Below are positions 1-37,649 of a DNA stretch of 64,000 bases, in pieces. The first letter of the stretch is position 1. Each line of letters starts with the position of its first letter. A program made the translations under genes and the position numbers. Below the pieces are notes generated by a model. The model ran no database searches. It was not told the origin of the DNA and worked only from the letters and a program-made list of their open reading frames with translations. Source of the DNA: Deinococcales bacterium (GTDB taxonomy: Bacteria > Deinococcota > Deinococci > Deinococcales > JAAFIG01); the NCBI GenBank assembly GCA_025359505.1, contig JANYHH010000112.1:1-64000 (forward strand). The letters are read 5' to 3'.

Positions 1-2
1 TA

Positions 3-137
3 GGGCAGATTTCAAAATGGTTGACCGCTTTTGTCAACCATTTTCGAGTAACACGAGTAGAAACAAAGGGCGTATTGCACACGTTGGGAGCAAATTGTTT
101 CTGAACAATTTGTGGACAACCTTTGTGCAAAACGCCC
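3..137 (-). mobile_element. MITE-like palindromic element, copy 1, flanked by TA (1-2 and 138-139)
   Basis: 12-bp perfect hairpin 14-25/33-44 (aaaatggttgac/gtcaaccatttt); second stem 68-80/125-137 (gggcgtattgcac/gtgcaaaacgccc, one mismatch). Same architecture and linker (ttttcgagtaacacgagtagaaac) as the copy at 36991-37114. GGGC...GCCC termini between TA dinucleotides. Confidence 0.8.
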
Positions 138-235
138 TAAAGCAACAGCGCGGTCACGACGGACTGAGCGGCCGGTAAATCTAACCGCCGCAAATCCTTC
201 TCAGCCGCTCGAGTGAACAGTACGTTTTCGATCAC
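137..235 (-). pseudogene. RelE/ParE-family toxin N-terminus, truncated by MITE-like copy 1
   Basis: GTG at 235 overlaps antitoxin stop (GTGA). Translation VIENVLFTRAAEKDLRRLDLPAAQSVVTALLL* resembles RelE/ParE N-termini; stop TAG (137-139) is formed by the TA target plus first G of the element. Confidence 0.65.
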
Positions 236-474
236 GAAATTCCGAGGCGAGTCATGATTTCAGACAGCGGAATCTTCGGCTCTGACTGCGCTTTTGCAAG
301 CCGCGCCTTGATGCGCCTCGTATCAGTCGGTGTCAGCACCTCTTCGTCAATCGCCAATGCCTCGGACAGCACGACCTCGAGCGCTTTGGCTCGAGTGCGA
401 ATGCCGCGCTGGAGCCGCACGCGATCCAATGCGGCGACAGTTTTGTCCGATACGTTCAGCAACGTCACGCTCAT
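232..474 (-). CDS. small ribbon-helix-helix-like antitoxin
   Basis: 80-aa ORF MSVTLLNVSDKTVAALDRVRLQRGIRTRAKALEVVLSEAL..., GTGA overlap with RelE-like ORF. Confidence 0.65.
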   Translation of the reverse strand: MSVTLLNVSDKTVAALDRVRLQRGIRTRAKALEVVLSEALAIDEEVLTPTDTRRIKARLAKAQSEPKIPLSEIMTRLGIS

Positions 475-578: not shown

Positions 579-626
579 TGGTGGAGGTGGAGGGATTTGA
601 ACCCACGACACCCCGCTTGCAAAGCG
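579..626. repeat. attL: 48-bp duplication of tRNA-Ala 3' half
   Basis: identical to 13070-13117 (tggtggaggtggagggatttgaacccacgacaccccgcttgcaaagcg). Confidence 0.92.
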
Positions 627-729
627 CTCAAAAGGCATACTCGAGCAAACCCGCTTATGCTGATTGTGCGTCTGAGACGCAATTCGCAAGAAGGGTCATT
701 CTCGCTCGTACCTCTCTGAACCCGTCTTG

Positions 730-748
730 TAGGTCACGGGTAGGTCAC
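730..748 (+). promoter_or_regulatory. putative integrase arm-type site (left)
   Basis: taggtcacgggtaggtcac, identical to 12980-12998, itself a tandem of taggtcac, about 100 bp inside attL. Confidence 0.55.
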
Positions 749-813
749 GAAACGCAACGCTCGAGGCGGAATTGGTGCGGGTAAGTATGAGCGGGGCTAA
801 ATTGTGGTAGGTT

Positions 814-1254
814 ATGAGTGTGACCTCGAGAGGATGGCGCTTACGGATTTCAAGGCAAGCCAGCCTCGAGAAGTATGCAGCGTTGAAAGTGCAATCTGAG
901 CGGTTTATATCTGTGTTTTTTATGCTTCGCGAGAAAATGCCATTGAAGTGGGTAAAAGACATCGGTGCGTTTTGCACTGCGCTCACCGAAAAGGCGCGGT
1001 CGAAGCATTTTCGCGCAGGGCAAAAAATCGACTTACGCTTTGGTCTAACAGAATCAGACGAAGACTCTTTTGCAGCTTCCGCGCTCGAGGAATTGAATCG
1101 CCTCAAAGTTTCGCTTTGGACGCTTTTGCAATTCCTAGTTTTACCAAACGCAGCAGTCCCAGACGCAATTGTCATATTCTGGGTTAACGAAACGAAAGCC
1201 ATTCCACCCCTCGAGTACCGCCCACAAATATCACCGAACGCCCCCGCGCTGTAA
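814..1254 (+). CDS. hypothetical protein
   Basis: 146-aa ORF inside the element, left end. Confidence 0.5.
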   Translation: MSVTSRGWRLRISRQASLEKYAALKVQSERFISVFFMLREKMPLKWVKDIGAFCTALTEKARSKHFRAGQKIDLRFGLTESDEDSFAASALEELNRLKVSLWTLLQFLVLPNAAVPDAIVIFWVNETKAIPPLEYRPQISPNAPAL

Positions 1255-1310
1255 CCGTGGCTGGCTCGAGATTTCCTCGAGCCTAAGCAACGACCAGCGA
1301 GGGCTTTTTC

Positions 1311-1511
1311 ATGACTGAATTAAAAGACGCCGCGCAAACGCGCCGTGTGTTCAATGCGTTTGAAGCGGGCAAAATTGCAGGTGTAGGACACAACCGAATC
1401 CGCGAATGGGTACGCGCTGGCACGCTCAGAGCCTTACCGGGCCGTCGCATCCTCATCCCAGAAGCCGCGCTCGAGACGTTCTTGCAAAGCGCGTCGCGGG
1501 GTGAAATGTGA
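1311..1511 (+). CDS. excisionase-like helix-turn-helix protein
   Basis: 66 aa: FNAFEAGKIAGVGHNRIREWVRAGTLRALPGRRILIPEAALETFLQ, HTH_17/Xis-like pattern. Confidence 0.7.
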   Translation: MTELKDAAQTRRVFNAFEAGKIAGVGHNRIREWVRAGTLRALPGRRILIPEAALETFLQSASRGEM

Positions 1512-1689
1512 AGCCCCGCGCTGGCAACGCGGGACGCTCGAGCAAAACCAAGGGCAGTGTACAACCTCGAGACCTGACGCCGATCAGCAGCGCGTCAACG
1601 ATCCAATGGGATGACCTGCCCGGCGTGCAGCTCGAGGCGGGCCGTGACCAGCCGCTCGAGCTTGCCCTGACCAAGAAACGCGGTTCATA

Positions 1690-2535
1690 GTGAGCGCTGA
1701 TACCCTGACGCGGGCCGTGAGCGCTGCTGACCTGCCCGCGTTGGTCGCGTCGCATTTCCCAGAGTCTCGAGCCATGCCGGGCAAAGTGGGGCGTGTGCGC
1801 TGCACATGGCGCTCGGACTCGGGCGACCTGAACGGCGCATTGTTTCGTGGTCGCGGCGGTGCGTGGCGTTTGCACGACTTTGTGACGGGCGAAAACTGGG
1901 ACGCTTTTAGCTTCTGTACCGATGTGCTGAGCATGACGCGCTCGAGCGCCGCGTCTTACCTGATTCGCCTTGCTGGACTCGAGGGTGAACGCGACTCGAG
2001 CAAACCCCGTCACCGACCAGCAGCGATCAGCACAGCCCGCGATGACTTGCCCGCGTTTCCCGTCGCGCTCGAGTCATGGCGGCGCGTCTACGCGCTCTTG
2101 GGTCAGCCGCTACGCCTCGAGTTGCAAGGCGTGGGACGTGAAGCGCTCGAATCGCTTGCTGAGTGGCTGGCAGATGCACTCAGACCCGTCAAGGCGCGAC
2201 TCGAGGGCATGGCGGCGGGCGTCACGCTCGAGCTGTGCGCGGATACCTTCATGGGCGTTGAGGCTCGAGTCTGCCCGTTTGGTCAGCGCTGGCTGTCACG
2301 ACTGGCGATGCTCGAGCGTGACGCGACGGGGCGCGGGTTCTCGAGGGTTGCGTTCGGTTGCGAACCGTGCGGGGAACTGTGGACGGCGGTGGAACTCGAG
2401 GCAAGCCATGAGCGACCACGCAATTTGATGCAACAGTTTGATTTGATGAAATCGGGCAGTGCATCAAATCCTAAGCCGTGCCAAACGGCAAACATGGATT
2501 TGATGCAATCGCGCCCTACAGATCGGGGGTGGTAA
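1690..2535 (+). CDS. primase-N-terminus-like replication-associated protein
   Basis: 281 aa; VRCTWRSDSGDLNGALFRGRGGAWRLHDFVTGENWDAFSFCTDVL resembles CHC2-type primase N-termini; followed directly by Rep-like ATPase. Confidence 0.5.
   Translation: MSADTLTRAVSAADLPALVASHFPESRAMPGKVGRVRCTWRSDSGDLNGALFRGRGGAWRLHDFVTGENWDAFSFCTDVLSMTRSSAASYLIRLAGLEGERDSSKPRHRPAAISTARDDLPAFPVALESWRRVYALLGQPLRLELQGVGREALESLAEWLADALRPVKARLEGMAAGVTLELCADTFMGVEARVCPFGQRWLSRLAMLERDATGRGFSRVAFGCEPCGELWTAVELEASHERPRNLMQQFDLMKSGSASNPKPCQTANMDLMQSRPTDRGW
2423..2507. repeat. iteron cluster I (4 copies of GATTTGATGCA-like 11-mer)
   Basis: 2423-2432 atttgatgca; 2440-2450 gatttgatgaa; 2460-2470 tgcatcaaatc (inverted); 2497-2507 gatttgatgca. 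Confidence 0.75.
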
Positions 2536-3980
2536 GCGTGGGATTGAAAGCCGTTTCGATGATTGGCCCACTCAGACCCATTCAATTCGCCGTCCCCGAT
2601 TTCATCCCAGCAGCCTTCGTGAGCTTCTTAGGTGCAAGGGAAGGTGTTGGAAAAACAACCATGCTCACGGGGCTACTGTGGCAACTGTCGCGCCCTAACG
2701 GTGGCGAGTGGCTTGGGATGCGCGTCAAGACAGGCTCGAGCATCTATGTCAACACTGACGCCCCTGACGGTGAGAGCCGCAGTGTCCGGCACTGGCTCGA
2801 GAAGCATCGCGCCGCGTATCCAGATGGCAGTGTCGAGCGGATTTACGTTCTCGAGCCTGAGAACAGCGGTTTGTCATCTCAAGACTTGATTGACCTTGAG
2901 CAGCTAGCCAGAGACACCGAAGCGCGGGTGATCGTGATTGACTCTTACATGGGCGCGTTCCCCGCGTCTGACAGCAATAGGCTTGAGCAAACCATGATCC
3001 CGATGCAGTCCCTTGTGAAGCTGGCGGCCAAAACGGGCGCAGCGGTGATCGTCACCGATCACCTACCGAAGCGGGCCGCAGGTGAGCGCGACGGGGATAG
3101 GGGCATCATGGGCAGCGTTGCAAAGAGCGCACAGGCGCGGGCCGTGATCCTGCTCACCCGCATTCCCCCGAAAGATTGCGAAGGCAAGACCGCCGTGCGG
3201 CTCGAGGTCACGAAGCAAAGCTATGCACAGCATCTCGAGCCGTTCGGTGTGGTGCTGAGGGTCACGCCTGACGAAGAAAACGCACTCGGGGCGGTTTACC
3301 TCGAGCCATTTGAACTGCCTGACGAAGCGACGCACACGGGCAAGTACCGCGCCCAGCAGGGCGTCATTCAAGCGATGCGCTTATCAGTCGGGGAGTGGTT
3401 CTCGAGATCGGCGCTGCTGCAAATTGCGGTACGCTCGGGGAACATCGGTGAACGTCAAGCGGCCCCGGCGTTACACGCGGCCCTCGGGGAACTCGGGGAC
3501 GCGCTAGAGGAACGCACGCTCAAAGAGCGCGGTAGCCCGAAGGAGTACCGCGTCAAGCCGCTCGAGGTCAGCGGCGATTCACTCCCGACCGTGCCGCCTG
3601 AAAGTGCGTCGCTCTGGGATGGAGAGCCTGAATTCATCAAATCAAGTGAAGCTGTGCAGTACGCGAATGATTTGATGCACACCGCGATTGCATCAAATCA
3701 GGGTAACTTTCAGACCCCCGTCTGCGCTGTCCCCGCAAATTCAGACCCTACTTCCCTAAGTTTGCTCGACAAGGATGCAACGGCCCACGAGGCGATCCTG
3801 ACGGCCCTCGAGAATGGCACGGTGCGCCGCGCTGACTTTCCCCAGACCCGTGCCTTCCGCCGGGCGTTCTCGCAACTTGTAGAAGCGAATCAAATCATTC
3901 AAGCTGACTCCAAAACCTATGCCCGCGCCGCTCGAGCGCTCGAGCCTGTACCCGGTGAGGTGGCGTATGACCTCGAATGA
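2478..3980 (+). CDS. RepA-like / AAA (RecA-fold) ATPase; true start probably GTG near 2532
   Basis: Walker A GAREGVGKTTM, Walker B-like ARVIVIDSYMGAF, VIVTDHLPKRA; RepA/AAA_25-like. Confidence 0.75.
   Translation: MPNGKHGFDAIAPYRSGVVSVGLKAVSMIGPLRPIQFAVPDFIPAAFVSFLGAREGVGKTTMLTGLLWQLSRPNGGEWLGMRVKTGSSIYVNTDAPDGESRSVRHWLEKHRAAYPDGSVERIYVLEPENSGLSSQDLIDLEQLARDTEARVIVIDSYMGAFPASDSNRLEQTMIPMQSLVKLAAKTGAAVIVTDHLPKRAAGERDGDRGIMGSVAKSAQARAVILLTRIPPKDCEGKTAVRLEVTKQSYAQHLEPFGVVLRVTPDEENALGAVYLEPFELPDEATHTGKYRAQQGVIQAMRLSVGEWFSRSALLQIAVRSGNIGERQAAPALHAALGELGDALEERTLKERGSPKEYRVKPLEVSGDSLPTVPPESASLWDGEPEFIKSSEAVQYANDLMHTAIASNQGNFQTPVCAVPANSDPTSLSLLDKDATAHEAILTALENGTVRRADFPQTRAFRRAFSQLVEANQIIQADSKTYARAARALEPVPGEVAYDLE
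3633..3699. repeat. iteron cluster II (3 copies) inside the Rep-like gene
   Basis: 3633-3643 ttcatcaaatc; 3669-3679 gatttgatgca; 3689-3699 tgcatcaaatc. Confidence 0.7.
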
Positions 3981-4404
3981 CCTCATGGCCTTGGTGCAGC
4001 TCCTCGAGCGTCGCGGGGTGAAGTTTGAAGCCAAACCCGACGGCGGCATTCGCGTCAAATCACCCACGCCGCTCGAGCCTGAACTGCTCGAGCAAGTCCG
4101 TCTCAACAAAACCCAGATTCTCGAGCTGCTGAGTCAACCAGTACGGCCCGCACCGCCTTTGCCATTGGCAAACATCACGCCGCTCGAGCCATTGCCACTT
4201 GACTTGCACGCCCTCGTGCGAGCCGCCTCGAGTGGCGTACTTCCCAAAGGTGCGGTCAACCTCGGCACGGGCTTCACTGTTGACCTCGAGCGCTACGTCT
4301 TGGGTTTTGCAGCGCAGTACCTGACCGGCGATCAGTCGCACGCACTCGAGAACCTACGGGCCGCACTCGGGGCGTGGTTGCCATCTCGCATGGGCTTGAA
4401 TTGA
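3966..4404 (+). CDS. TubC N-terminal docking-domain-like small protein
   Basis: LVQLLERRGVKFEAKPDGGIRVKSPTPLEPELLEQVRLNKTQILELL. Confidence 0.5.
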
Positions 4405-4464
4405 ATGCAAGGGCAAGGTGGTCAAGTAAGACGCACGCCTTCTAAGCGTGTTGGACACTAGCGC

Positions 4465-7140
4465 ATGGCGTTTTCCATCGAAGCCCTGTTCTTCCTGCGC
4501 GACCGCGCCAGCGGGCCCGCACGGGGCATCGGTGCAGCGGCTCAGAGTGCAGCCGCGAAACTCAGTAACGCCGGAACCCAAGGGCAAACCGCGACTGGCA
4601 AGATCGGTGCAGCAGCGACCGCAGCGGGCGGCAAGCTGCGCGGCATGGGAACGCAAGCCACCAGCGCCGGGCAGCAACTCAGCACTGGCTTAGCTCGAGG
4701 CAAGAACGCCGCCGCGACCCTCGGCACGGGACTCAATCAAGCCAGTCGAAACGCTGACCGGCTGACCTCGAGCGCCCGTCGCGCCGGAGGTGCAATCCAA
4801 TCAGCGCTCGAGAAACCGATGGGGGCCGTCACGGGATTGACGGGCAAGATTTTCAGTTTGCAAACCGCGCTCGGCGCACTGGCCGCCGGGGCGGGCATCG
4901 CCATGATCGGCAAGGGCATTGTGAACGCGGTGGGTTACAAAGAACAAAGCCTGATCGCGTTCACCAGCCTCTTAAAAGATGCGGGCAGCGCTAACAGAGC
5001 CTACAAGGACAGCATTGCGTTCGCTGCCAGCACCCCGTTTGAAACAAGGGAAGTCGTCGAAGCCACCAAGAGCCTGCTGTCCTACGGCTTCGGAATCAGG
5101 AACATCAAAAGCGTGATGACCAGCGCTGGCAACGTCGCCGCTGGCATGGGCAAGCCGCTCGAGCAGGCCGTGATCGCATTCAGCGCGTTGCGAAGCGGTG
5201 ATTTCGGGCAGGCGTTCGGTGTCGGGCAGGGCTTCAATCAACTCGGAATTACTCGAGAGCAACTGATGGGCAAGGGCTTGGTGTTCGACAAGAAAGGCAG
5301 TTACAAAGGATCAGTGGAATCGGCGATGGTCGCGGTGCAACGCATCATCAAAGACCGTTTCGGGAACGGCATGGCGCAGCAAAGCCGCAGCATCTTCGGG
5401 TTGGTCTCCACGCTGCAAAGCCGTCCGTTCGAGTTGTTCTCGAGCCTCGATGCGAACGGGGCGCTGAAACCGTTCAAGAATGTGCTGGAACGCATCGCGG
5501 AAATGACGGACTTTGAAAACAATCCGACGGGACGGCGCATCAAAGCATCGTTCACCGCGTTCGCTGGTAGCATTTTTAAGAACGGCTTTCAGGGCGTTGA
5601 GAGTTTCTTCACACCCAAGCGCGTCCCGACCGCGAAAAAGATCATCACCAGCGGGCATATCACCACGAAGTACGTGATGATGAGCGACGCGGAACTGATG
5701 CTCGACCGCGTGATGAACCGCATCACCAAGTTCACCAAGTGGGTGCAGACCAACGGGCCCATCATCATCAAAGGCATTCAGGAGATCGGCGCGGGCATCA
5801 GGGACGGCTTCACGACGATCCGCAGCGCGTATGAAACCGCGAAACCGTTTCTCGAGGGCATCGGTGACATCCTCGGCAAGATCATGCCCAAAGGTCAGGG
5901 CGGCTCGAGTCTCGCCCGCACAGCGGGTCAGGTACTCGTACTGGTCGGAGCGCTGAAACTGCTGAACGTCGTCAGCCTCGGGGCAAGCGCGTCGCTGCTG
6001 CGCTTTGCAGCCAGCGCCGCGTTGAAGGTCGTGTCCGTCCCCATCAAGTTTGTCGCAGGCAAAGCGGGCGGCTTGCTGGCAAGGGCAGCCAAGAACGCGT
6101 TGGTTAAGTCGCCCGTGCTGAATCTGGCGCGTCGCGCTGGTGGCGCGGTGGTCAGGGCGGGGCGCGACGTGCTCGGCAACATGGGCGAGGTCGGGCGCGG
6201 CGCGGCATCGTTCGTCAAGGAACGCATCCCGGTGGCTCGAGCGGCCGTGCGAACAGTGATGACTCGTTTTCTGACGAGTGGAACTGAAAAGCTCAAACTC
6301 GCAGGGCAAGCACTCAAGAACTTCGGTGCAGGCGCGAAGACCGTCGCGGTCAACTTTGCAACTCGAGGCATGGGAGCGCTGAAGACGGACGCGACGCTAC
6401 TGGGCAATTTATCGGCTCGAGCGGTCACAGCCACCGCTCGTTTCGCGGTCAGCGGCGTGCAATTACTTAAAAGCGGTGTAATCGCGCTCTCGAGCATGGG
6501 ACTGACCGCGCTCAGAAGCGCTGGGCAACTCGCACTCAGCGCCGCTCGAGGATCAGTTGCGTTGATTCGCTTAGGTGTGCAAAGCCTGCTGATGGGCGGG
6601 CGCATGGCGGCCGCGTGGCTGATCGGACTGGGGCCCATCGGTTGGATCATCGCGGGCGTCGCGCTGGTCGGCGGGGCGCTCGTGCTGGCGTACAACAAGG
6701 TTGGGTGGTTCAAGGATGGGGTGAACGCGGCGTGGGCGTGGATCAAAACCGCGACCTCGAGCGCGGCCGCGTGGATCAGCAGCGCATTTCAGAACAGCCT
6801 CGCGTTCGTGCAAGGATTGCCCGCGAAAGTCGTGGGGTTCTTCACGGGCTTACCCGGTCAGCTTCAGACCATCGGCACTCAGATGCTGCAAGGACTGGCG
6901 AGCGGCATCACGGGCGCACTGGCGGGCGTCAAGGATGCGGTGGTCGGTGCGGGTCAGAGCGCCATTGGTTGGCTGAAAAGCACGCTGGGTATTGCCAGTC
7001 CGTCGAGGGTCTTCATGGGCTTGGGCGGGTACGTCGGGGATGGTTTCGCGCTTGGCATTGGGGCAGCTCGAGACGCGTCGCGGGTGCGTCGCGGCGCTTG
7101 GCGGGTGCAGCGGTGCGCGGCGTGGGCAATCCCAGTCTGA
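4465..7140 (+). CDS. phage tail tape measure protein (C-terminus probably continues in another frame to 7535)
   Basis: 891 aa, Ala/Gly-rich, hydrophobic segments, ...IGWLKSTLGIASPSRVFMGLGGYVGDGFALGIG; typical TMP motif. Confidence 0.85.
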   Translation: MAFSIEALFFLRDRASGPARGIGAAAQSAAAKLSNAGTQGQTATGKIGAAATAAGGKLRGMGTQATSAGQQLSTGLARGKNAAATLGTGLNQASRNADRLTSSARRAGGAIQSALEKPMGAVTGLTGKIFSLQTALGALAAGAGIAMIGKGIVNAVGYKEQSLIAFTSLLKDAGSANRAYKDSIAFAASTPFETREVVEATKSLLSYGFGIRNIKSVMTSAGNVAAGMGKPLEQAVIAFSALRSGDFGQAFGVGQGFNQLGITREQLMGKGLVFDKKGSYKGSVESAMVAVQRIIKDRFGNGMAQQSRSIFGLVSTLQSRPFELFSSLDANGALKPFKNVLERIAEMTDFENNPTGRRIKASFTAFAGSIFKNGFQGVESFFTPKRVPTAKKIITSGHITTKYVMMSDAELMLDRVMNRITKFTKWVQTNGPIIIKGIQEIGAGIRDGFTTIRSAYETAKPFLEGIGDILGKIMPKGQGGSSLARTAGQVLVLVGALKLLNVVSLGASASLLRFAASAALKVVSVPIKFVAGKAGGLLARAAKNALVKSPVLNLARRAGGAVVRAGRDVLGNMGEVGRGAASFVKERIPVARAAVRTVMTRFLTSGTEKLKLAGQALKNFGAGAKTVAVNFATRGMGALKTDATLLGNLSARAVTATARFAVSGVQLLKSGVIALSSMGLTALRSAGQLALSAARGSVALIRLGVQSLLMGGRMAAAWLIGLGPIGWIIAGVALVGGALVLAYNKVGWFKDGVNAAWAWIKTATSSAAAWISSAFQNSLAFVQGLPAKVVGFFTGLPGQLQTIGTQMLQGLASGITGALAGVKDAVVGAGQSAIGWLKSTLGIASPSRVFMGLGGYVGDGFALGIGAARDASRVRRGAWRVQRCAAWAIPV

Positions 7141-7535
7141 AGCGCCGCGAGACGGGCAAGGCGCTCAGTACCCCGCCGCGTCGCGCCTCGGTCAGCATCT
7201 TGCGTCGTGGTCCAGTCGCACAACCTCGAGCCAAATCAGTCAGCACGCCCCGCTCCGCGCTTTTACCAGCTCGAGCGACGCAGGTCAGTGCGCGTCAAGC
7301 ACCTTTAACCCGTCCCGTGCAGGTACTCGCTCGAGCCACGCCGCAGCGCGGATCGGCTCGGGGGAACGTGACGATTTCTTCAGGGGCGATTTCATCCGGC
7401 GCGATTGTCGTGCAGGTCATCGCCAATGCCGGGCAGAGTCCAAAGGAAATTGCGAGTGCAGCAGCGGACATTATCGAGGAGCGCTTGGAGATGATGGCCT
7501 TGCGGTTCGGGTCTGGCTTGCAGGCAAGGGAGTGA
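7062..7535 (+). CDS. probable tape-measure C-terminal segment in -1 frame
   Basis: SSRRVAGASRRLAGAAVRGVGNPSL...GQSPKEIASAAADIIEERLEMMALRFGSG; continuous with TMP motif FALGIG but in another frame. Confidence 0.5.
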   Translation, partial: GSSRRVAGASRRLAGAAVRGVGNPSLKRRETGKALSTPPRRASVSILRRGPVAQPRAKSVSTPRSALLPARATQVSARQAPLTRPVQVLARATPQRGSARGNVTISSGAISSGAIVVQVIANAGQSPKEIASAAADIIEERLEMMALRFGSGLQARE

Positions 7536-7538
7536 AAC

Positions 7539-8108
7539 GTGGCTAAATTTGGTGTTCCACAGAAGAATCCGGAAGTCTGGCAGACGCTGACTTTGAACGG
7601 TAAAACCTTGCCGGGCATCGTTCAAGATGTCAGGCTCGGCGGTCAGTTATCCATGCAAAAAGAAACCGTGAACGGCAAGGACGGCACGATCCTCGCCAAT
7701 GCTCAGTGGGATGAAGACACAGCAACGTTCACTGTCAAAGTCTCGAGTGAAACGGACATTGATGCGTTGTCAGATTTCACTAAAGCGTACAAAGCAAGGC
7801 CCGGTCAGCGTCCACAAGTGGTTTTTGTGCAGCATCCGCTGCTGCAACTGTTTGGGGTGTACCAGATGATCGTCTCGAGCATCGAGATTCGATGGACGCC
7901 GGAGCAGTGGAAGAACATCATCGTGGTGGACATTGGATTGACGAATATCAATCCGAAACTCGGTAAGAGGGCCCCTGATGGTGTGAACGGAACTCCGAAA
8001 GTAGCGATCACACCTGACCAAGCGGCGGCATTCGATTTTTACGATCAAACCTTCGTCGAGGGCGTCAGGGTCAAACCGTCAGATGCACCGCCTCCCGTCA
8101 AACCATAG
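7539..8108 (+). CDS. phage tail-associated protein
   Basis: 189 aa directly downstream of TMP; WQTLTLNGKTLPGIVQDVRLGGQL... Confidence 0.5.
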   Translation: MAKFGVPQKNPEVWQTLTLNGKTLPGIVQDVRLGGQLSMQKETVNGKDGTILANAQWDEDTATFTVKVSSETDIDALSDFTKAYKARPGQRPQVVFVQHPLLQLFGVYQMIVSSIEIRWTPEQWKNIIVVDIGLTNINPKLGKRAPDGVNGTPKVAITPDQAAAFDFYDQTFVEGVRVKPSDAPPPVKP

Positions 8109-8148
8109 CCCCGGTCACCGCGCACGACATCTCACAGGAGAATTCACG

Positions 8149-8844
8149 ATGAATCAAGCCACATTGACCCCACAGCCGACCCTCGAGACTTCGCCCCGCG
8201 TGACCACGGCCGGTTACACGCACCCGCGCAACCCTGAACAGCTCGAGCCGCTGATTCAAGCCGCAAAGGCAGCCGTGCGAACCGCTCGGGATAACCTTGA
8301 GGATCTGCAAGCTGAGCGCAACAAAGCCGAGGAGTTCGCTGAGGGCCTTGCGAAGACTGGACGCCCTGACTTCAAACTCCTCGACGAGTACGAAACGCGT
8401 TTCCAATCCGTCGCCCGGGCCCTCAGAGCAGGACAAAAAACGCTCGAGGAGGCAACGACCGCGCTGGCTGACCTCGAGCATGAACACAAAGCCTTTGCTC
8501 GAGACGAGGCGGTGTGGGCGAATGCCACGGATTTTATGGCGATCATCAATGCTTACGACGCGCAGCGCGATTTGCTGCTGTCAACGGTGATGGGCGCTCG
8601 AGCGAAACTCGTGGAGCTGAGAGAAGCGGCGATCAGCAAGCATATGCAAGCGGTCGGGATGGGCGTACCCAGTGGCGACCGCACGGCCTTGAGGGCTTTG
8701 CTGACCGATCAGGGCATCAGCGGTCGGGCGCTCGAGCTGCTGCTGATTGACGCTTCTAATTTCACGTTTTACGAGGAGTCACACCCGATCCTGCGCGTCA
8801 ATGACAACTTGGATAGGTTGTTTGCCACTGGCAAATTGCAGTAA
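8149..8844 (+). CDS. hypothetical coiled-coil protein of tail module
   Basis: ATG 8149 preceded by aggag; 230+ aa. Confidence 0.55.
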   Translation: MNQATLTPQPTLETSPRVTTAGYTHPRNPEQLEPLIQAAKAAVRTARDNLEDLQAERNKAEEFAEGLAKTGRPDFKLLDEYETRFQSVARALRAGQKTLEEATTALADLEHEHKAFARDEAVWANATDFMAIINAYDAQRDLLLSTVMGARAKLVELREAAISKHMQAVGMGVPSGDRTALRALLTDQGISGRALELLLIDASNFTFYEESHPILRVNDNLDRLFATGKLQ

Positions 8845-8882
8845 ACTGCTCTTCAGCTAGAAACAGTGGGAAAGGGGACGAT

Positions 8883-9119
8883 GTGAAAGACCACGTGAAG
8901 CTCAAGAAGTTGATTGATGAGCTGAAAGCCGCTCGAGCCGCTGGCACGCTCACCGCAAGCCAAGCGAGCCGCATTCGCGCTGAGGCGGAAGTGGCGGCCG
9001 ACCACGATCCGCGCTTCTTAGCGACGTTCTTTCACAACGCGCCGCCGGAATTCTTATCGGGGCGGCTCGAGGTGCAAACAGCCCGGTTGGACTTCCCACC
9101 GGAAAAGCCGAATCGGTAA
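8883..9119 (+). CDS. hypothetical small protein
   Basis: 78 aa, GTG start, upstream aaagggg. Confidence 0.5.
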   Translation: MKDHVKLKKLIDELKAARAAGTLTASQASRIRAEAEVAADHDPRFLATFFHNAPPEFLSGRLEVQTARLDFPPEKPNR

Positions 9120-9136
9120 ACCTGACCTCGAGCGGT

Positions 9137-9178
9137 AACGCAGGTGCGACTAGTTTTAAGCAGTCGCACCTGCTTTTT
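9137..9178 (+). terminator. Rho-independent terminator
   Basis: gcaggtgcgact agttttaagc agtcgcacctgc tttttt. Confidence 0.85.
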
Positions 9179-9248
9179 TGATAGCGGACTGTGCATTGTG
9201 TATAACGATTCTCGAGGGTCACGCAGGCCGTACAATTCACGTGAGGCA

Positions 9249-9482
9249 ATGCGAGACGATCCGGAACTTCACACATTGCGCGGTGTCTTAGCCCGCGCTG
9301 ACTGGCTGACCGCACATGGCGCTTGGACTCAGGAGTGCTTTGACGAGCTGGTCAGGGCGTCACTGGGCACGGGTGAGCAGGACAGCCTCGAGCCGCTGTT
9401 CTTGCGAGTGCCAGAAGTGCCAGACGAGTACGTCGGCCCGTACCTAGACCGCACGTTCAAACGCGGTCAGCCCATCCGGTGA
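9249..9482 (+). CDS. hypothetical protein
   Basis: MRDDPELHTLRGVLARADWLTAHGAWTQECFDELVRASLG... Confidence 0.45.
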   Translation: MRDDPELHTLRGVLARADWLTAHGAWTQECFDELVRASLGTGEQDSLEPLFLRVPEVPDEYVGPYLDRTFKRGQPIR

Positions 9483-9718
9483 CGCTCGAGCGCGTCAAGT
9501 TTCGCGCATCTTGAGACCTCGGGTTTGACCTGCGGCGCTCACTTCGTACTCGTCACAGGCTAAACGCTCTTTTCACTCATGAAGCAGTGCGGCAACCAAG
9601 ACAGCCCGCACGAGGTGAACGTTGTATCACTCGAGCGTGGTAAAGGGCGGCAGAAGGGCAACAGAAGGGCGGCAAAAGCAAGCTGAGTGAATTCCGAAAA
9701 AGGTACTCAAAGGGTACT

Positions 9719-9755
9719 CAAAAACGCCCTCGAGTATTTGGCTCAAGGGCGCTAT
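9719..9755 (-). terminator. terminator of the minus-strand small-gene operon
   Basis: minus: gcgcccttgag ccaaata ctcgagggcg tttttg. Confidence 0.65.
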
Positions 9756-9763
9756 TACTTCGG

Positions 9764-10081
9764 TCAGGCGCTATCTTCGGGATTATCGCGGCGGTACTGC
9801 TCGAGGCGTTTTACGTGCGGCTCGAGCAGCTTCTGAGCGGTGAGGTGGTCTCGAGGGGCGCACCAGAGGCGTGCAAGCTGTCCTTCAGCCGTCACAGCGC
9901 AGCGCACGTCACGGCGGTGCAATTCGTGCATGGTTGACATCGCTGTTCCGAGTGTCGGGGCGACCACGCTGACGGTAAAAGCTGCGAAGGCGTGTTCTTC
10001 GGGCAGGAAGATACCTTTGGCTCGAGTGGCGAGGCGTTCGGCCCAGTTGCGGAGCGCGTAAGGGTCTTGGGTGCGTTTCAT
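9764..10081 (-). CDS. hypothetical protein
   Basis: 105 aa; ATGA overlap with upstream 58-aa ORF. Confidence 0.55.
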   Translation of the reverse strand: MKRTQDPYALRNWAERLATRAKGIFLPEEHAFAAFTVSVVAPTLGTAMSTMHELHRRDVRCAVTAEGQLARLWCAPRDHLTAQKLLEPHVKRLEQYRRDNPEDSA

Positions 10082-10254
10082 GCCGTGACCTGCCTTTCGA
10101 GTTTCTTACCGATCAGCTCGAGAACGAACGGGGTGACGCGCATCGTGACGGCTTTGCCACTGACCTCGAGTGTGACGTGGGGCGTGCCGTCGCGTAGGAA
10201 GGGTTTGGCAGTCACGAGTTCACCGTCTGGGCTTGTCCAGCGCAGGCGCTTCAT
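10078..10254 (-). CDS. hypothetical small protein (below ORF-track cutoff)
   Basis: MKRLRWTSPDGELVTAKPFLRDGTPHVTLEVSGKAVTMRVTPFVLELIGKKLERQVTA; ATGA overlaps at both ends. Confidence 0.55.
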   Translation of the reverse strand: MKRLRWTSPDGELVTAKPFLRDGTPHVTLEVSGKAVTMRVTPFVLELIGKKLERQVTA

Positions 10255-10514
10255 CGCGTCGCCCCTGCGAACTCGAGTAGGGCGTTACCGAGACGCTTGG
10301 CGGCTTCGCGGTCAAGCTCGAGGTGCAAGTCCTGATCTGTGACGCGCACCAGTAACCACAAACCCGTGACGGTCTGGGTGAGGGTCAGCGCAGCCGTGTC
10401 GCGGCTCGAGGTGCTGGTGATGACGCTGACCAGTGTGCGCGGCAGGGTGGGTGAGGGCTTCACGCCCTCACCTCTTTTTTGTGTTCGCGGGCATCCTCGA
10501 GCCGCGCCTTCCAC
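10251..10514 (-). CDS. hypothetical protein
   Basis: ORF in tightly packed minus operon. Confidence 0.45.
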   Translation of the reverse strand: MEGAARGCPRTQKRGEGVKPSPTLPRTLVSVITSTSSRDTAALTLTQTVTGLWLLVRVTDQDLHLELDREAAKRLGNALLEFAGATR

Positions 10515-10725
10515 GTGCGGGCGTCGCGTTCGGTGACGGTGAAGCTGATGGTGCTGTCTTCGCGCCGGGCGGTGATCGTGCGGCGTGATGGGTGTTCGTT
10601 GGTCATCTCGAGTTTGTACCAGTCACCGCCGTGACCGTGTGTGACGAGTACGCGACGGGTGATGAAGCCGTTCTCGAGTTTGCCGCTGTGCGTCATTTCT
10701 TGCGTGAGGGCTGTGATACTGTTCA
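10460..10725 (-). CDS. hypothetical protein
   Basis: MNSITALTQEMTHSGKLENGFITRRVLVTHGHGGDWYKLEMTNEHPSRRTITARREDSTISFTV... Confidence 0.45.
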
Positions 10726-10819
10726 TTTCGACTCCTGACAACTTGGGATTCTCGAGACCATCCTTTCTTTGCCGGGATGGTGGTCTTGAGTGCCAATATA
10801 GTATCAACTCTTGGTAGTC

Positions 10820-10847
10820 TTGTCAAGTATCGGTATTTGTGTATATT
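10820..10847 (+). promoter_or_regulatory. sigma70-type promoter of the XRE-PemK-int operon
   Basis: TTGTCA(10820)-N16-TATATT(10842) with ATG at 10857; overlapping repeated ggtat/ttggta motifs suggest an operator. Confidence 0.6.
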
Positions 10848-10856
10848 GGTATTGTC

Positions 10857-11219
10857 ATGATTAGATTGAATATTGGTAGTTACCTCCAGCAAAAGAACAT
10901 CACCCCCTACCGCTTAGTCAAAGAAAGCGGTTTGGCTCCCAACACGGTTTACACGCTGGCAAGATCACCAGCTAAACGAGTTGACCTCGACACCCTAGGA
11001 TCAATCGTCGAGGCACTGACGCGCCTCACGGGTCAGCCCGTTACACCAAACGACCTGCTCGAGGTCATCGAAACACCCGCACCACTCGAGACCACTGACA
11101 GCGACGCTCGAGCATGGCTCACAGCCGACCTCGCACCGAACCTCGAGCCTTACGACTGGGGAGAAATTAACCCTGACACGCTCGGTAAAGCCGTCACCAA
11201 AAGCAGGACGCACCAGTGA
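10857..11219 (+). CDS. XRE-family HTH antitoxin
   Basis: MIRLNIGSYLQQKNITPYRLVKESGLAPNTVYTLAR..., followed by PemK/MazF-like toxin with GTGA overlap. Confidence 0.75.
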   Translation: MIRLNIGSYLQQKNITPYRLVKESGLAPNTVYTLARSPAKRVDLDTLGSIVEALTRLTGQPVTPNDLLEVIETPAPLETTDSDARAWLTADLAPNLEPYDWGEINPDTLGKAVTKSRTHQ

Positions 11220-11593
11220 CCACATTCAAAGCTCGAGACCTCATCATTGTCGAGTTCCCCAGTCAAACACCGCAGGGTCACGAGCAGGAAGGTAGACGGC
11301 CCGCAGTGATCCTCGGAGTTCCCACGAAAAACCGCTACCCGACGGTCATCATTGCGCCGTTCACTCGAGACACAGGGCAAGCATGGGCGCTGAAAAACCC
11401 GAGTTTGTACCCGCGACTGGCGAGTGACACGGGCGGGTTGCCACTAGCAAGCATCGTCATGCTTGACCAGATCAAAGCCGCTGATGTCACGCGAATCAGC
11501 CGCAAACTTGGCAGGCTGACCGCTGATGAGTACACACCGATTCTGAACGGCGTACTGGACTTGCTCGAGGTGGTGCGCGATGCCTCGAGCTAA
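11216..11593 (+). CDS. PemK/MazF-family toxin
   Basis: FKARDLIIVEFPSQTPQGHEQEGRRPAVILGVPTKNRYPTVIIAPFT...SIVMLDQIKAADVTRISRKLGRLTADEYTPILNGVLDLL. Confidence 0.8.
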   Translation: MTTFKARDLIIVEFPSQTPQGHEQEGRRPAVILGVPTKNRYPTVIIAPFTRDTGQAWALKNPSLYPRLASDTGGLPLASIVMLDQIKAADVTRISRKLGRLTADEYTPILNGVLDLLEVVRDASS

Positions 11594-12962
11594 AGAAGCA
11601 GGCGACAAATTACCCGAGGGAATGGACAGACTCCCCAGTGGCAAGTATCGCTGGCGCGTCACCGTCGGATACCGCAACGGTAAGCAAGTCAGGGTCACAG
11701 GCGCATCTGACACGCTGAAAGAAGCTAAATTAGACCGCGCTAAAGCCATTGCTGATTACGAACGGCGCGTGCTGGCCATGCCTGACCGCGTGACCGTCAA
11801 GGACTACGCCCTACGCTGGCTCGAGGTGCAAGACGTGCGCCCGAACACCCGCAAAATGTACGCGCACGAACTGAGTTACGCGCTCGAGGTGGTGGGCGAT
11901 ATGCCACTGCGCGACGTGCGCCCCACGCACATCAAAGACGCACTGGCAACCCTGAAGAATCGCGTCATGGGCAGTGCAGCCGCCAAAAAACGCGGCGTGA
12001 AGCTGCATACGATGTCAACCAGAACACTTGGAAAGGTCAGAACACGACTGCATTCTATTTTCGCAGCGGCTCAGGCCGATCAGCGCATTTACACCAATCC
12101 CGTAGAGGCAACCAAACGCATCAAAGGACAGGACGGCGGCGACGCCCGTCAAGGTGTGGCGCTGGACTTTGACCAAGCCGCCCGCTTGCACGAACTCGGA
12201 GATGCGCTACACGCCGCCGGAGTGTGCCGTTTGTGGGTGGCGATCTTCACAGCCGTGTCCATCGGTTTGCGGCGCGGTGAGGTCATGGGGCTACGCATCG
12301 AAGACGTAGACCTCGAGAAAAACCTGCTGACGATCCGGCAGAACCTTATCAGCGTGGACGGCGTAATCCAGATCAGCAAACCCAAGACGCGGCAAAGCAC
12401 CCGTGATATTCCGATCCCGCCAAGTTTGCGCGTCGCGCTCGAGCAGCAATGCGCGGCGATGCAGGAAGAAGCCAGCATCAGAGGTGAGCGCTTACGGGCT
12501 GACGCGCCGTTGTTTGCGACGGTCACAGGCGAATACACGCAACCCGACAACCTGTATCGCGCCCTGAAAGGCGTGCTGGCATGGTCAAACCCGAACGGGG
12601 CAGTGAACAAACCGCGAGCAAAACGCGGCGCTAAAACTCGAGTGGTGACTGTGCAACGCAGTGAACTCGAGCGACGCCTGAAGACCGTGCCAATCGCGCA
12701 CAGGGCGCGACTCGAGGCGATCATCAACGACGGTGCGGCCCTGCCGCGCATCTCGCCGCACGACCTGCGACACACAGCCGGGACGCAGATGCTACGCCGC
12801 AAAATGCCGTTTGAAGTGGTTAGCAAAGTTCTTGGTCACGCAAAAGTCAGCATCACGCTTGACGTGTACCGCCATGTCCTCGAGTCGGAAACGAAAGCTG
12901 AGATGGTGGATTTATACCCACTACGGGCCGCTCGAGTGGTGGGTGTCGCGCCGATGAATTGA
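11580..12962 (+). CDS. tyrosine site-specific integrase
   Basis: 460 aa; R...H-L-R-H-T (ISPHDLRHTAGTQML), VSKVLGHAKVSITLDVYRHV. Confidence 0.95.
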   Translation: MPRAKEAGDKLPEGMDRLPSGKYRWRVTVGYRNGKQVRVTGASDTLKEAKLDRAKAIADYERRVLAMPDRVTVKDYALRWLEVQDVRPNTRKMYAHELSYALEVVGDMPLRDVRPTHIKDALATLKNRVMGSAAAKKRGVKLHTMSTRTLGKVRTRLHSIFAAAQADQRIYTNPVEATKRIKGQDGGDARQGVALDFDQAARLHELGDALHAAGVCRLWVAIFTAVSIGLRRGEVMGLRIEDVDLEKNLLTIRQNLISVDGVIQISKPKTRQSTRDIPIPPSLRVALEQQCAAMQEEASIRGERLRADAPLFATVTGEYTQPDNLYRALKGVLAWSNPNGAVNKPRAKRGAKTRVVTVQRSELERRLKTVPIAHRARLEAIINDGAALPRISPHDLRHTAGTQMLRRKMPFEVVSKVLGHAKVSITLDVYRHVLESETKAEMVDLYPLRAARVVGVAPMN

Positions 12963-12979
12963 CGCGCTTTTTTGAGTTT

Positions 12980-12998
12980 TAGGTCACGGGTAGGTCAC
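12980..12998 (+). promoter_or_regulatory. putative integrase arm-type site (right)
   Basis: taggtcacgggtaggtcac identical to 730-748, about 70 bp inside attR. Confidence 0.55.
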
Positions 12999-13040
12999 AG
13001 ACCAGCGAATAAACGAGCAAAGCGATACCGCTTAAAACGA

Positions 13041-13068
13041 AGAATCCCGTCACTGACGGGATTCTTTT
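13041..13068 (-). terminator. terminator downstream of restored tRNA-Ala
   Basis: agaatcccgtcactgacgggattctttt. Confidence 0.6.
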
Positions 13069-13069
13069 A

Positions 13070-13144
13070 TGGTGGAGGTGGAGGGATTTGAACCCACGAC
13101 ACCCCGCTTGCAAAGCGGGTGCTCTCCCCCTGAGCTACACCCCC
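13070..13144 (-). tRNA. tRNA-Ala(UGC), CCA encoded; attR within its 3' half
   Basis: GGGGGTGTAGCTCAGGGGGAGAGCACCCGCTTTGCAAGCGGGGTGTCGTGGGTTCAAATCCCTCCACCTCCACCA folds as cloverleaf with TGC anticodon. Confidence 0.97.
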
Positions 13145-36869: not shown

Positions 36870-37334
36870 TTACTCGAGGTGCAACACCAGTTTCAGTCCC
36901 AAATCAACCTCGTCCATGAGCCAGTCTGGAAGTTGACCAATCCGCCTTACGAGTAGCTTTTTGGTTGCTGTCACGAGTTGCGTGACGTTACGGCAAATTT
37001 CAAAATGCTTGACGGCAGTTCTGTCAAGCATTTTCGAGGAACCCGAGTGGAAACGACGGGCGGTTTGCAATGGAGTGAACGCACGAAGTGCGACAACGTA
37101 TTTGCAAACCGCCCTAATCACCGAGTCTTTACTCAGCTCGTAATCCGCCTCGAGCAGCACATTGCCTCACGCCCGTGCCAATTCGAGGTTTGTGGTCAAC
37201 CCGACGACGATCACGGTGTTCAAACGGCTTTGATTGAATGTATCGTCCTGTACGATCAACACGGGGCGTTCAAACCCCGGATTCGACTCCCCAGCAGGCG
37301 CGAGATTCGCCCACCATAATTCGCCGCGCTGCAC
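36870..37334 (-). pseudogene. MazF-family toxin, disrupted by TGA (37167-37169) and in-frame MITE-like insertion
   Basis: VQRGELWWANLAPAGESNPGFERPVLIVQDDTFNQSRLNTVIVVGLTTNLELARA*GNVLLEADYELSKDSVI-[42 aa]-NVTQLVTATKKLLVRRIGQLPDWLMDEVDLGLKLVLHLE; TGAGTG overlap with antitoxin. Confidence 0.85.
36991..37114 (-). mobile_element. MITE-like palindromic element, copy 2, flanked by TA (36989-36990, 37115-37116)
   Basis: hairpin 37002-37013/37023-37034 (aaaatgcttgac/gtcaagcatttt) and 13-bp perfect stem 37058-37070/37102-37114; covaries with copy 1. Confidence 0.85.
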
Positions 37335-37649
37335 TCAGCGCCACTCGTTTTGCAGTAACGTTGATTTTGCGGCGTTCTCGATCACTGCATCTGACTCGAG
37401 GTCAGTGTAGATTTCATTCAGATTCTCGAGCAACTGCTTTCGCGCCTCGGGATTTCTGTAATCCACGCGCCTTGAGAGATCGGCAGGCCCTTTGGCAATG
37501 CCAACCCAACTGGGTACACCCTTGAGCCGCGACGCAGCAAAACTTTGCAGTGCGTCGTGAATGACCTCACTGACCTCACGCTGCTCTCGAGCAGCGATTT
37601 CGTGGAGTGCTGCCTCGAGTTCCTGCGGTAAGTTCACAGAGACGTTCAT
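37335..37649 (-). CDS. CopG/RHH-type antitoxin
   Basis: MNVSVNLPQELEAALHEIAAREQREVSEVIHDALQSF. Confidence 0.8.
   Translation of the reverse strand: MNVSVNLPQELEAALHEIAAREQREVSEVIHDALQSFAASRLKGVPSWVGIAKGPADLSRRVDYRNPEARKQLLENLNEIYTDLESDAVIENAAKSTLLQNEWR

What the first reader, a model, noticed from the sequence alone, without database searches (positions are those of the whole stretch)
1..474. The other element copy disrupts a RelE-like toxin: both copies sit in TA toxin genes
Seen directly: downstream of the RHH antitoxin (232-474, minus), a GTGA-coupled ORF reads VIENVLFTRAAEKDLRRLDLPAAQSVVTALLL and stops at TAG formed by the target TA plus element G (137-139). So in one 64-kb window both copies lie in the toxin, in the same orientation relative to transcription, with antitoxins intact. 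Inference: either preferential survival of insertions that neutralise toxins, or targeting. This could be a transposon-mediated toxin-silencing strategy.
Basis: partly seen in the sequence, partly recalled or inferred. Interest (0 to 1): 0.85.

Follow-up and report, generated by a model that had tools for sequence, protein, structure and literature searches.

The report
Mobile DNA repeat breaks toxin gene
In an uncultured Deinococcales bacterium a short non-autonomous transposon has landed inside the toxin half of a toxin-antitoxin pair; at least three other toxin genes in the genome are broken by mobile elements with their antitoxins intact, most simply because such hits are survivable while hits in antitoxins are not.

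Summary
Window 1-139 is a complete 139-bp MITE (TA...TA, two hairpins) that cuts a RelE/ParE-family toxin after codon 32; the 80-aa antitoxin upstream is intact. The contig begins exactly at the MITE because of a 141-bp assembly overlap, so nothing lies to the left. The missing C-terminal half is nevertheless in the same genome, on contig C21, next to an identical MITE copy: the two halves match residues 1-30 and about 35-85 of one intact toxin of a related genome, leaving a single codon at the TA. The gene is therefore split over two contigs, by MITE-MITE recombination or by an assembly chimera.

A survey of about 28 MITE copies finds five inside genes; three of the five are toxins (RelE, MazF/PemK, PIN/TIGR00305). 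An unrelated ISAs1-type IS with a 9-bp duplication breaks a fourth toxin (RelE). All four antitoxins are intact. Two further PIN toxins are dead through a stop codon or a frameshift.

Because two unrelated elements and point mutations hit the same class of gene, survivorship explains this better than targeting by this MITE. 'Same orientation' fails for the PIN copy. The toxin excess is small in number and partly post hoc.

The parts
1..139 (.). MITE family A, complete copy: TA + GGGCAGATTTC at one end, GGGCGTTTTGCAC (read from the other strand) + TA at the other; two strong hairpins
   Evidence: three further places at 100%; folding z = -8.0 as DNA, -6.6 as RNA
137..235 (-). truncated RelE/ParE-family toxin, 32 codons, GTG start overlapping the antitoxin stop; stop TAG created by target TA + element G
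   Evidence: PF05016 E 0.19; 57% to residues 1-30 of the intact toxin of G001
232..474 (-). intact 80-aa antitoxin gene
   Evidence: 50% identical to the antitoxin coupled to an intact toxin in G001
138..139 (.). TA target dinucleotide (2-bp duplication with 1-2)
   Evidence: the SDR gene hit by an identical copy reads in frame when one TA is removed
36989..37117 (.). MITE family B, 129-bp copy inside the PemK/MazF gene
37167..37334 (-). PemK/MazF N-terminal part, ends at an in-frame TGA before the insertion
   Evidence: (PF02452 E 1.7e-12)
36870..36988 (-). PemK/MazF C-terminal part beyond the MITE
   Evidence: PF02452 positions 75-109
37335..37649 (-). intact CopG/RHH-like antitoxin of the MazF module
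   Evidence: PF01402 E 0.0012

Best explanation
A TA-targeting MITE, moved in trans by a transposase that was not found, inserted into the Tyr-33-equivalent codon of a RelE/ParE-family toxin. Its first bases (TA+G) create an immediate stop and leave a 32-residue stub under an intact antitoxin. The module is dead as a toxin. Insertions pile up in toxins because toxins are the dispensable half: a hit in an antitoxin frees the toxin and is lost, a hit in a toxin is neutral or mildly beneficial, and toxin-antitoxin islands carry many mobile elements. Later recombination between identical MITE copies (or a chimeric contig) put the toxin's C-terminal half on contig C21. Shown: the insertion, the stub, the C-terminal half, and the counts. 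Inferred: lethality of antitoxin hits, loss of toxicity, and recombination rather than chimera.
For: Stub and C21 piece align to residues 1-30 and about 35-85 of the same 94-aa toxin in G001 (57% and 63%). Of about 28 MITE copies, five interrupt genes: RelE, PemK, PIN (PF13470 E 2e-11 and TIGR00305), an SDR and a beta-lactamase-fold hydrolase. Five others lie exactly in stop codons and the rest are intergenic or unresolved, whereas 78% of the window's TA sites are coding, so coding hits are strongly purged. An unrelated ISAs1-type IS (PF13808/PF01609; 9-bp duplication GGGCTTGTT) breaks a second RelE (C8/C81). Two PIN toxins are dead by TAA or frameshift. All four transposon-broken toxins keep an open antitoxin frame.
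Against: At the intergenic insertion density only 0.24-0.49 toxin hits are expected and three are seen (P 0.002-0.014), so neutral tolerance alone falls a little short, although two of the three prompted the question. No antitoxin search was made, so absence of hits in antitoxins is not quantified. Nothing shows experimentally that the toxin was active before insertion.
Confidence: 0.75

Rival explanations
1. The MITE's transposase prefers toxin genes (by sequence or because of their transcription state) and so targets them.
For: Three of five gene hits are toxins.
Against: Target flanks share only TA; most copies are intergenic or in stop codons; an unrelated IS with a 9-bp duplication hits the same class; orientation is mixed.
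Confidence: 0.06
2. Loss of the toxin is positively selected in this lineage, so insertions of any kind in toxins rise in frequency.
For: Six of about 26-28 toxins in three families are broken (four by transposons, two by stop or frameshift), with the antitoxin frame open in the four transposon cases; hits exceed even the intergenic density.
Against: Small numbers; neutral decay plus clustering of MITEs with toxin-antitoxin modules (C31 carries four copies in 38.7 kb) could explain it.
Confidence: 0.15
3. The window start and the C21 junction are assembly artefacts and the toxin is intact in the organism.
For: C60, C76 and C127 share an exact 141-mer at the MITE, and the two toxin halves lie on different contigs.
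Against: Both halves are directly abutted by the MITE in contigs that continue into unique flanks, which needs a MITE at that site; the MazF and PIN insertions are internal to contigs.
Confidence: 0.04

Closest known systems
Bacterial MITEs with TA duplication (IS630/Tc1-mariner-related, Correia-type repeats; from general knowledge)
   Same: 100-200 bp, non-coding, strong hairpins, TA duplicated, many near-identical copies
   Different: Terminal repeat identity is limited to GGGC plus a few bases; no parental transposase found; no match in 120 related genomes
RelE/ParE toxin (PF05016) with an antitoxin encoded upstream
   Same: GTGA-coupled, 94 aa in the relative, PF05016 E 2e-7 for the intact homologue
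   Different: In the window it is truncated to 32 residues
MITEPsy2 of Pseudomonas syringae plasmids (PMC6354349)
   Same: Short MITE copies recombine and rearrange DNA near toxin-antitoxin modules (8.3-kb deletion at 3.8e-3)
   Different: There the modules hinder rearrangement; here the MITE disrupts the toxin itself
ISAs1-family IS
   Same: In the same genome, breaks another RelE; ends YAGGGCAAACGCACCAAGT
   Different: 9-bp duplication and different ends: not the MITE's parent, although the first bases look alike

Membership tests
MITE (TA-duplicating) | Short, non-coding, multicopy | tested here: met
   129-213 bp, about 28 copies
MITE (TA-duplicating) | 2-bp TA target duplication | tested here: met
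   SDR gene reads through in frame when the element and one TA are removed; beta-lactamase-fold halves are in compatible frames
MITE (TA-duplicating) | Terminal inverted repeats shared with an autonomous IS | tested here: inconclusive
   Ends share only TAGGGC; no transposase gene with these ends was seen in the incomplete assembly; the ISAs1-like IS has a 9-bp duplication
RelE/ParE toxin | PF05016 domain | tested here: inconclusive
   N stub E 0.19, C piece E 7e-4 (profile positions 49-89), intact homologue E 2e-7
RelE/ParE toxin | Toxic activity neutralised by the antitoxin | not testable with these tools
   needs expression
PIN toxin TIGR00305 | Family score | tested here: inconclusive
   N piece 27.1 bits against cut-off 29.15 (interrupted gene); PF13470 45.1 bits, above cut-off 27
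PemK/MazF toxin | PF02452 above gathering score | tested here: met
   N piece 47.9 bits against cut-off 23.1

The most novel reading that the evidence does not exclude
In this lineage mobile elements act as the main route by which toxins are selectively silenced while antitoxins are kept (perhaps as protection against incoming toxins), giving an excess of toxin insertions beyond neutral survival.
Probability: 0.15. Interest if true: 0.6.

Novelty: new member of a known kind. Interest (0 to 1): 0.36.

Why it matters
It gives a countable case of how toxin-antitoxin modules decay: transposons record which half of the pair can be lost. The four toxin-minus, antitoxin-plus modules allow a direct test of whether orphan antitoxins are kept for a purpose.

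Tried and rejected
ISAs1-like IS as parent of the MITE: rejected, because its TA/CA belong to its own ends and it makes a 9-bp duplication. A third RelE hit at C21: reduced to the same gene as the window stub. Synteny in G001 to decide between chimera and recombination: the acetamidase cluster is conserved, but neither C21-left nor C60 genes lie beside it, so inconclusive. MITE in relatives: none in 120 genomes by DNA. Rfam: no credible family for 1-139. Codon-usage scoring of flanks was too weak to be used alone, and its C127 row used wrong coordinates. ParE hit C123:16838 looks like a false positive inside a longer gene. Literature: no paper found on MITE insertion into toxin genes with the phrases tried, which is weak evidence because the library is partial.

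Full report
What is in the window. Bases 1-139 are a complete MITE. The contig (G000:C60, MAG of 4.23 Mb in 127 contigs) starts at its first base. The same 139 bp occur at 100% in C76:1-139, C127:3-141 and C21:111993-112131. C60 and C76 share exactly 141 bases and C127 ends with the same 141-mer, which fits a k=141 assembly graph; a relative's contig bears 'k141' in its name and is titled Deinococcales. So the window start is an assembly break at the repeat.

The toxin. The antitoxin (232-474 minus) is followed by a GTGA-coupled frame of 32 codons that ends at TAG, made of target TA and the element's G. The relative G001 has the same two-gene arrangement with a 50% identical antitoxin and an intact 94-aa toxin, which matches PF05016 at E 2e-7. 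The window stub matches that toxin's residues 1-30. A search of the own genome with PF05016 found a C-terminal piece at C21:112133-112285 that begins right after another MITE copy. It matches the same G001 toxin over about residues 35-85 at 63%. The two pieces leave one codon, the one straddling the TA, unaccounted for (Tyr in G001). They are therefore, by inference, the halves of one gene. On C21 the C-terminal half is joined through the MITE to an HTH_17 gene, and C60's true left partner is not in the assembly under that arrangement. C127 and C76 pair with each other across an SDR gene that reads through in frame. By graph logic an unsplit C21 path argues for a real MITE-MITE exchange, but pruning by the assembler cannot be excluded; recombination between short MITE copies is documented elsewhere (PMC6354349).

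Survey. I count about 28 copies in two families: A of 139-213 bp and B of 129 or about 170 bp. Five interrupt genes: RelE (window), PemK (window 36989-37117), a PIN_3/TIGR00305 toxin at about C31:25805-25972, an SDR, and a beta-lactamase-fold hydrolase (C76 right end with C90). Five sit exactly in the TA of a stop codon (aldolase-, VgrG-, FecCD- and NHL-like genes and one unnamed), where TA+G recreates the stop; those names are from the look of the translations only. The others are intergenic or unresolved at contig ends. In the window 960 of 1235 TA sites are coding, 29 are in stop codons and 246 are intergenic by a simple gene call, so coding hits are purged heavily.

Is there toxin enrichment? 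Three families give about 20-22 intact toxins and six broken ones: four by transposons (RelE window/C21, RelE C8/C81, PemK, PIN) and two PIN genes by a TAA (C21:74190) or a frameshift (C30:56569). At the intergenic density of MITEs, 10-20 kb of toxin DNA (my assumption for all toxins of the genome) would receive 0.24-0.49 hits; three are seen (P 0.002-0.014). Two of these prompted the question. Among the other three gene hits one is a toxin, which alone proves little. C31 is a toxin-antitoxin island (PIN, ParE, three PemK) with four MITE copies, so clustering adds to the excess.

Why not targeting. The C8/C81 RelE is cut by an ISAs1-type IS with a 9-bp duplication (GGGCTTGTT on both sides), mechanistically unrelated to the TA-duplicating MITE. 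Other copies of that IS pair up by 9-mers and include a globin-like gene, by its look. Target flanks of the MITE share only TA. Orientation: RelE and PemK run into the MITE's right end, PIN into its left end. Thus selection on the outcome, common to all elements, is the better account. That toxins are dispensable and antitoxins needed while the toxin is present is established knowledge of type II modules; I found no paper in the library to cite for it.

Note on method. Flank joining was used in a survey script to show empty sites. The known toxin sites were left out; the PIN site was recognised as a toxin only from that output, and its pieces were kept apart afterwards.

Noticed in passing
window 1-64000: CTCGAG occurs 477 times (about 20 expected from base composition): a hyperabundant palindrome like HIP1 of cyanobacteria.
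   Followed up: partly
window 580-13144: Integrated element of about 12.5 kb between direct repeats of about 47 bp: the 3' part of tRNA-Ala at 13070-13144 (minus) and a copy at about 580-625.
   Followed up: partly
L142 (G000:C31:20001-38722), about 25.6-31 kb of C31: Toxin-antitoxin island: PIN (broken), ParE and three PemK genes in about 5 kb, with MITE copies at both sides.
   Followed up: partly
L084 / L096 (G000:C8 and C81 ends): ISAs1-type IS with 9-bp duplication splits a second RelE toxin; antitoxin at C8:356-538 intact.
   Followed up: yes
L018, L026, L030, L009, L012: Five MITE copies lie exactly in stop-codon TA; the element's TAG start keeps the stop. Not clearly above chance among non-coding sites (P 0.06).
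   Followed up: partly
L080, about 870-960: Another short inserted element (TACGGATTCCGTTAAATC...) inside an IS copy: probably a further MITE family.
   Followed up: no
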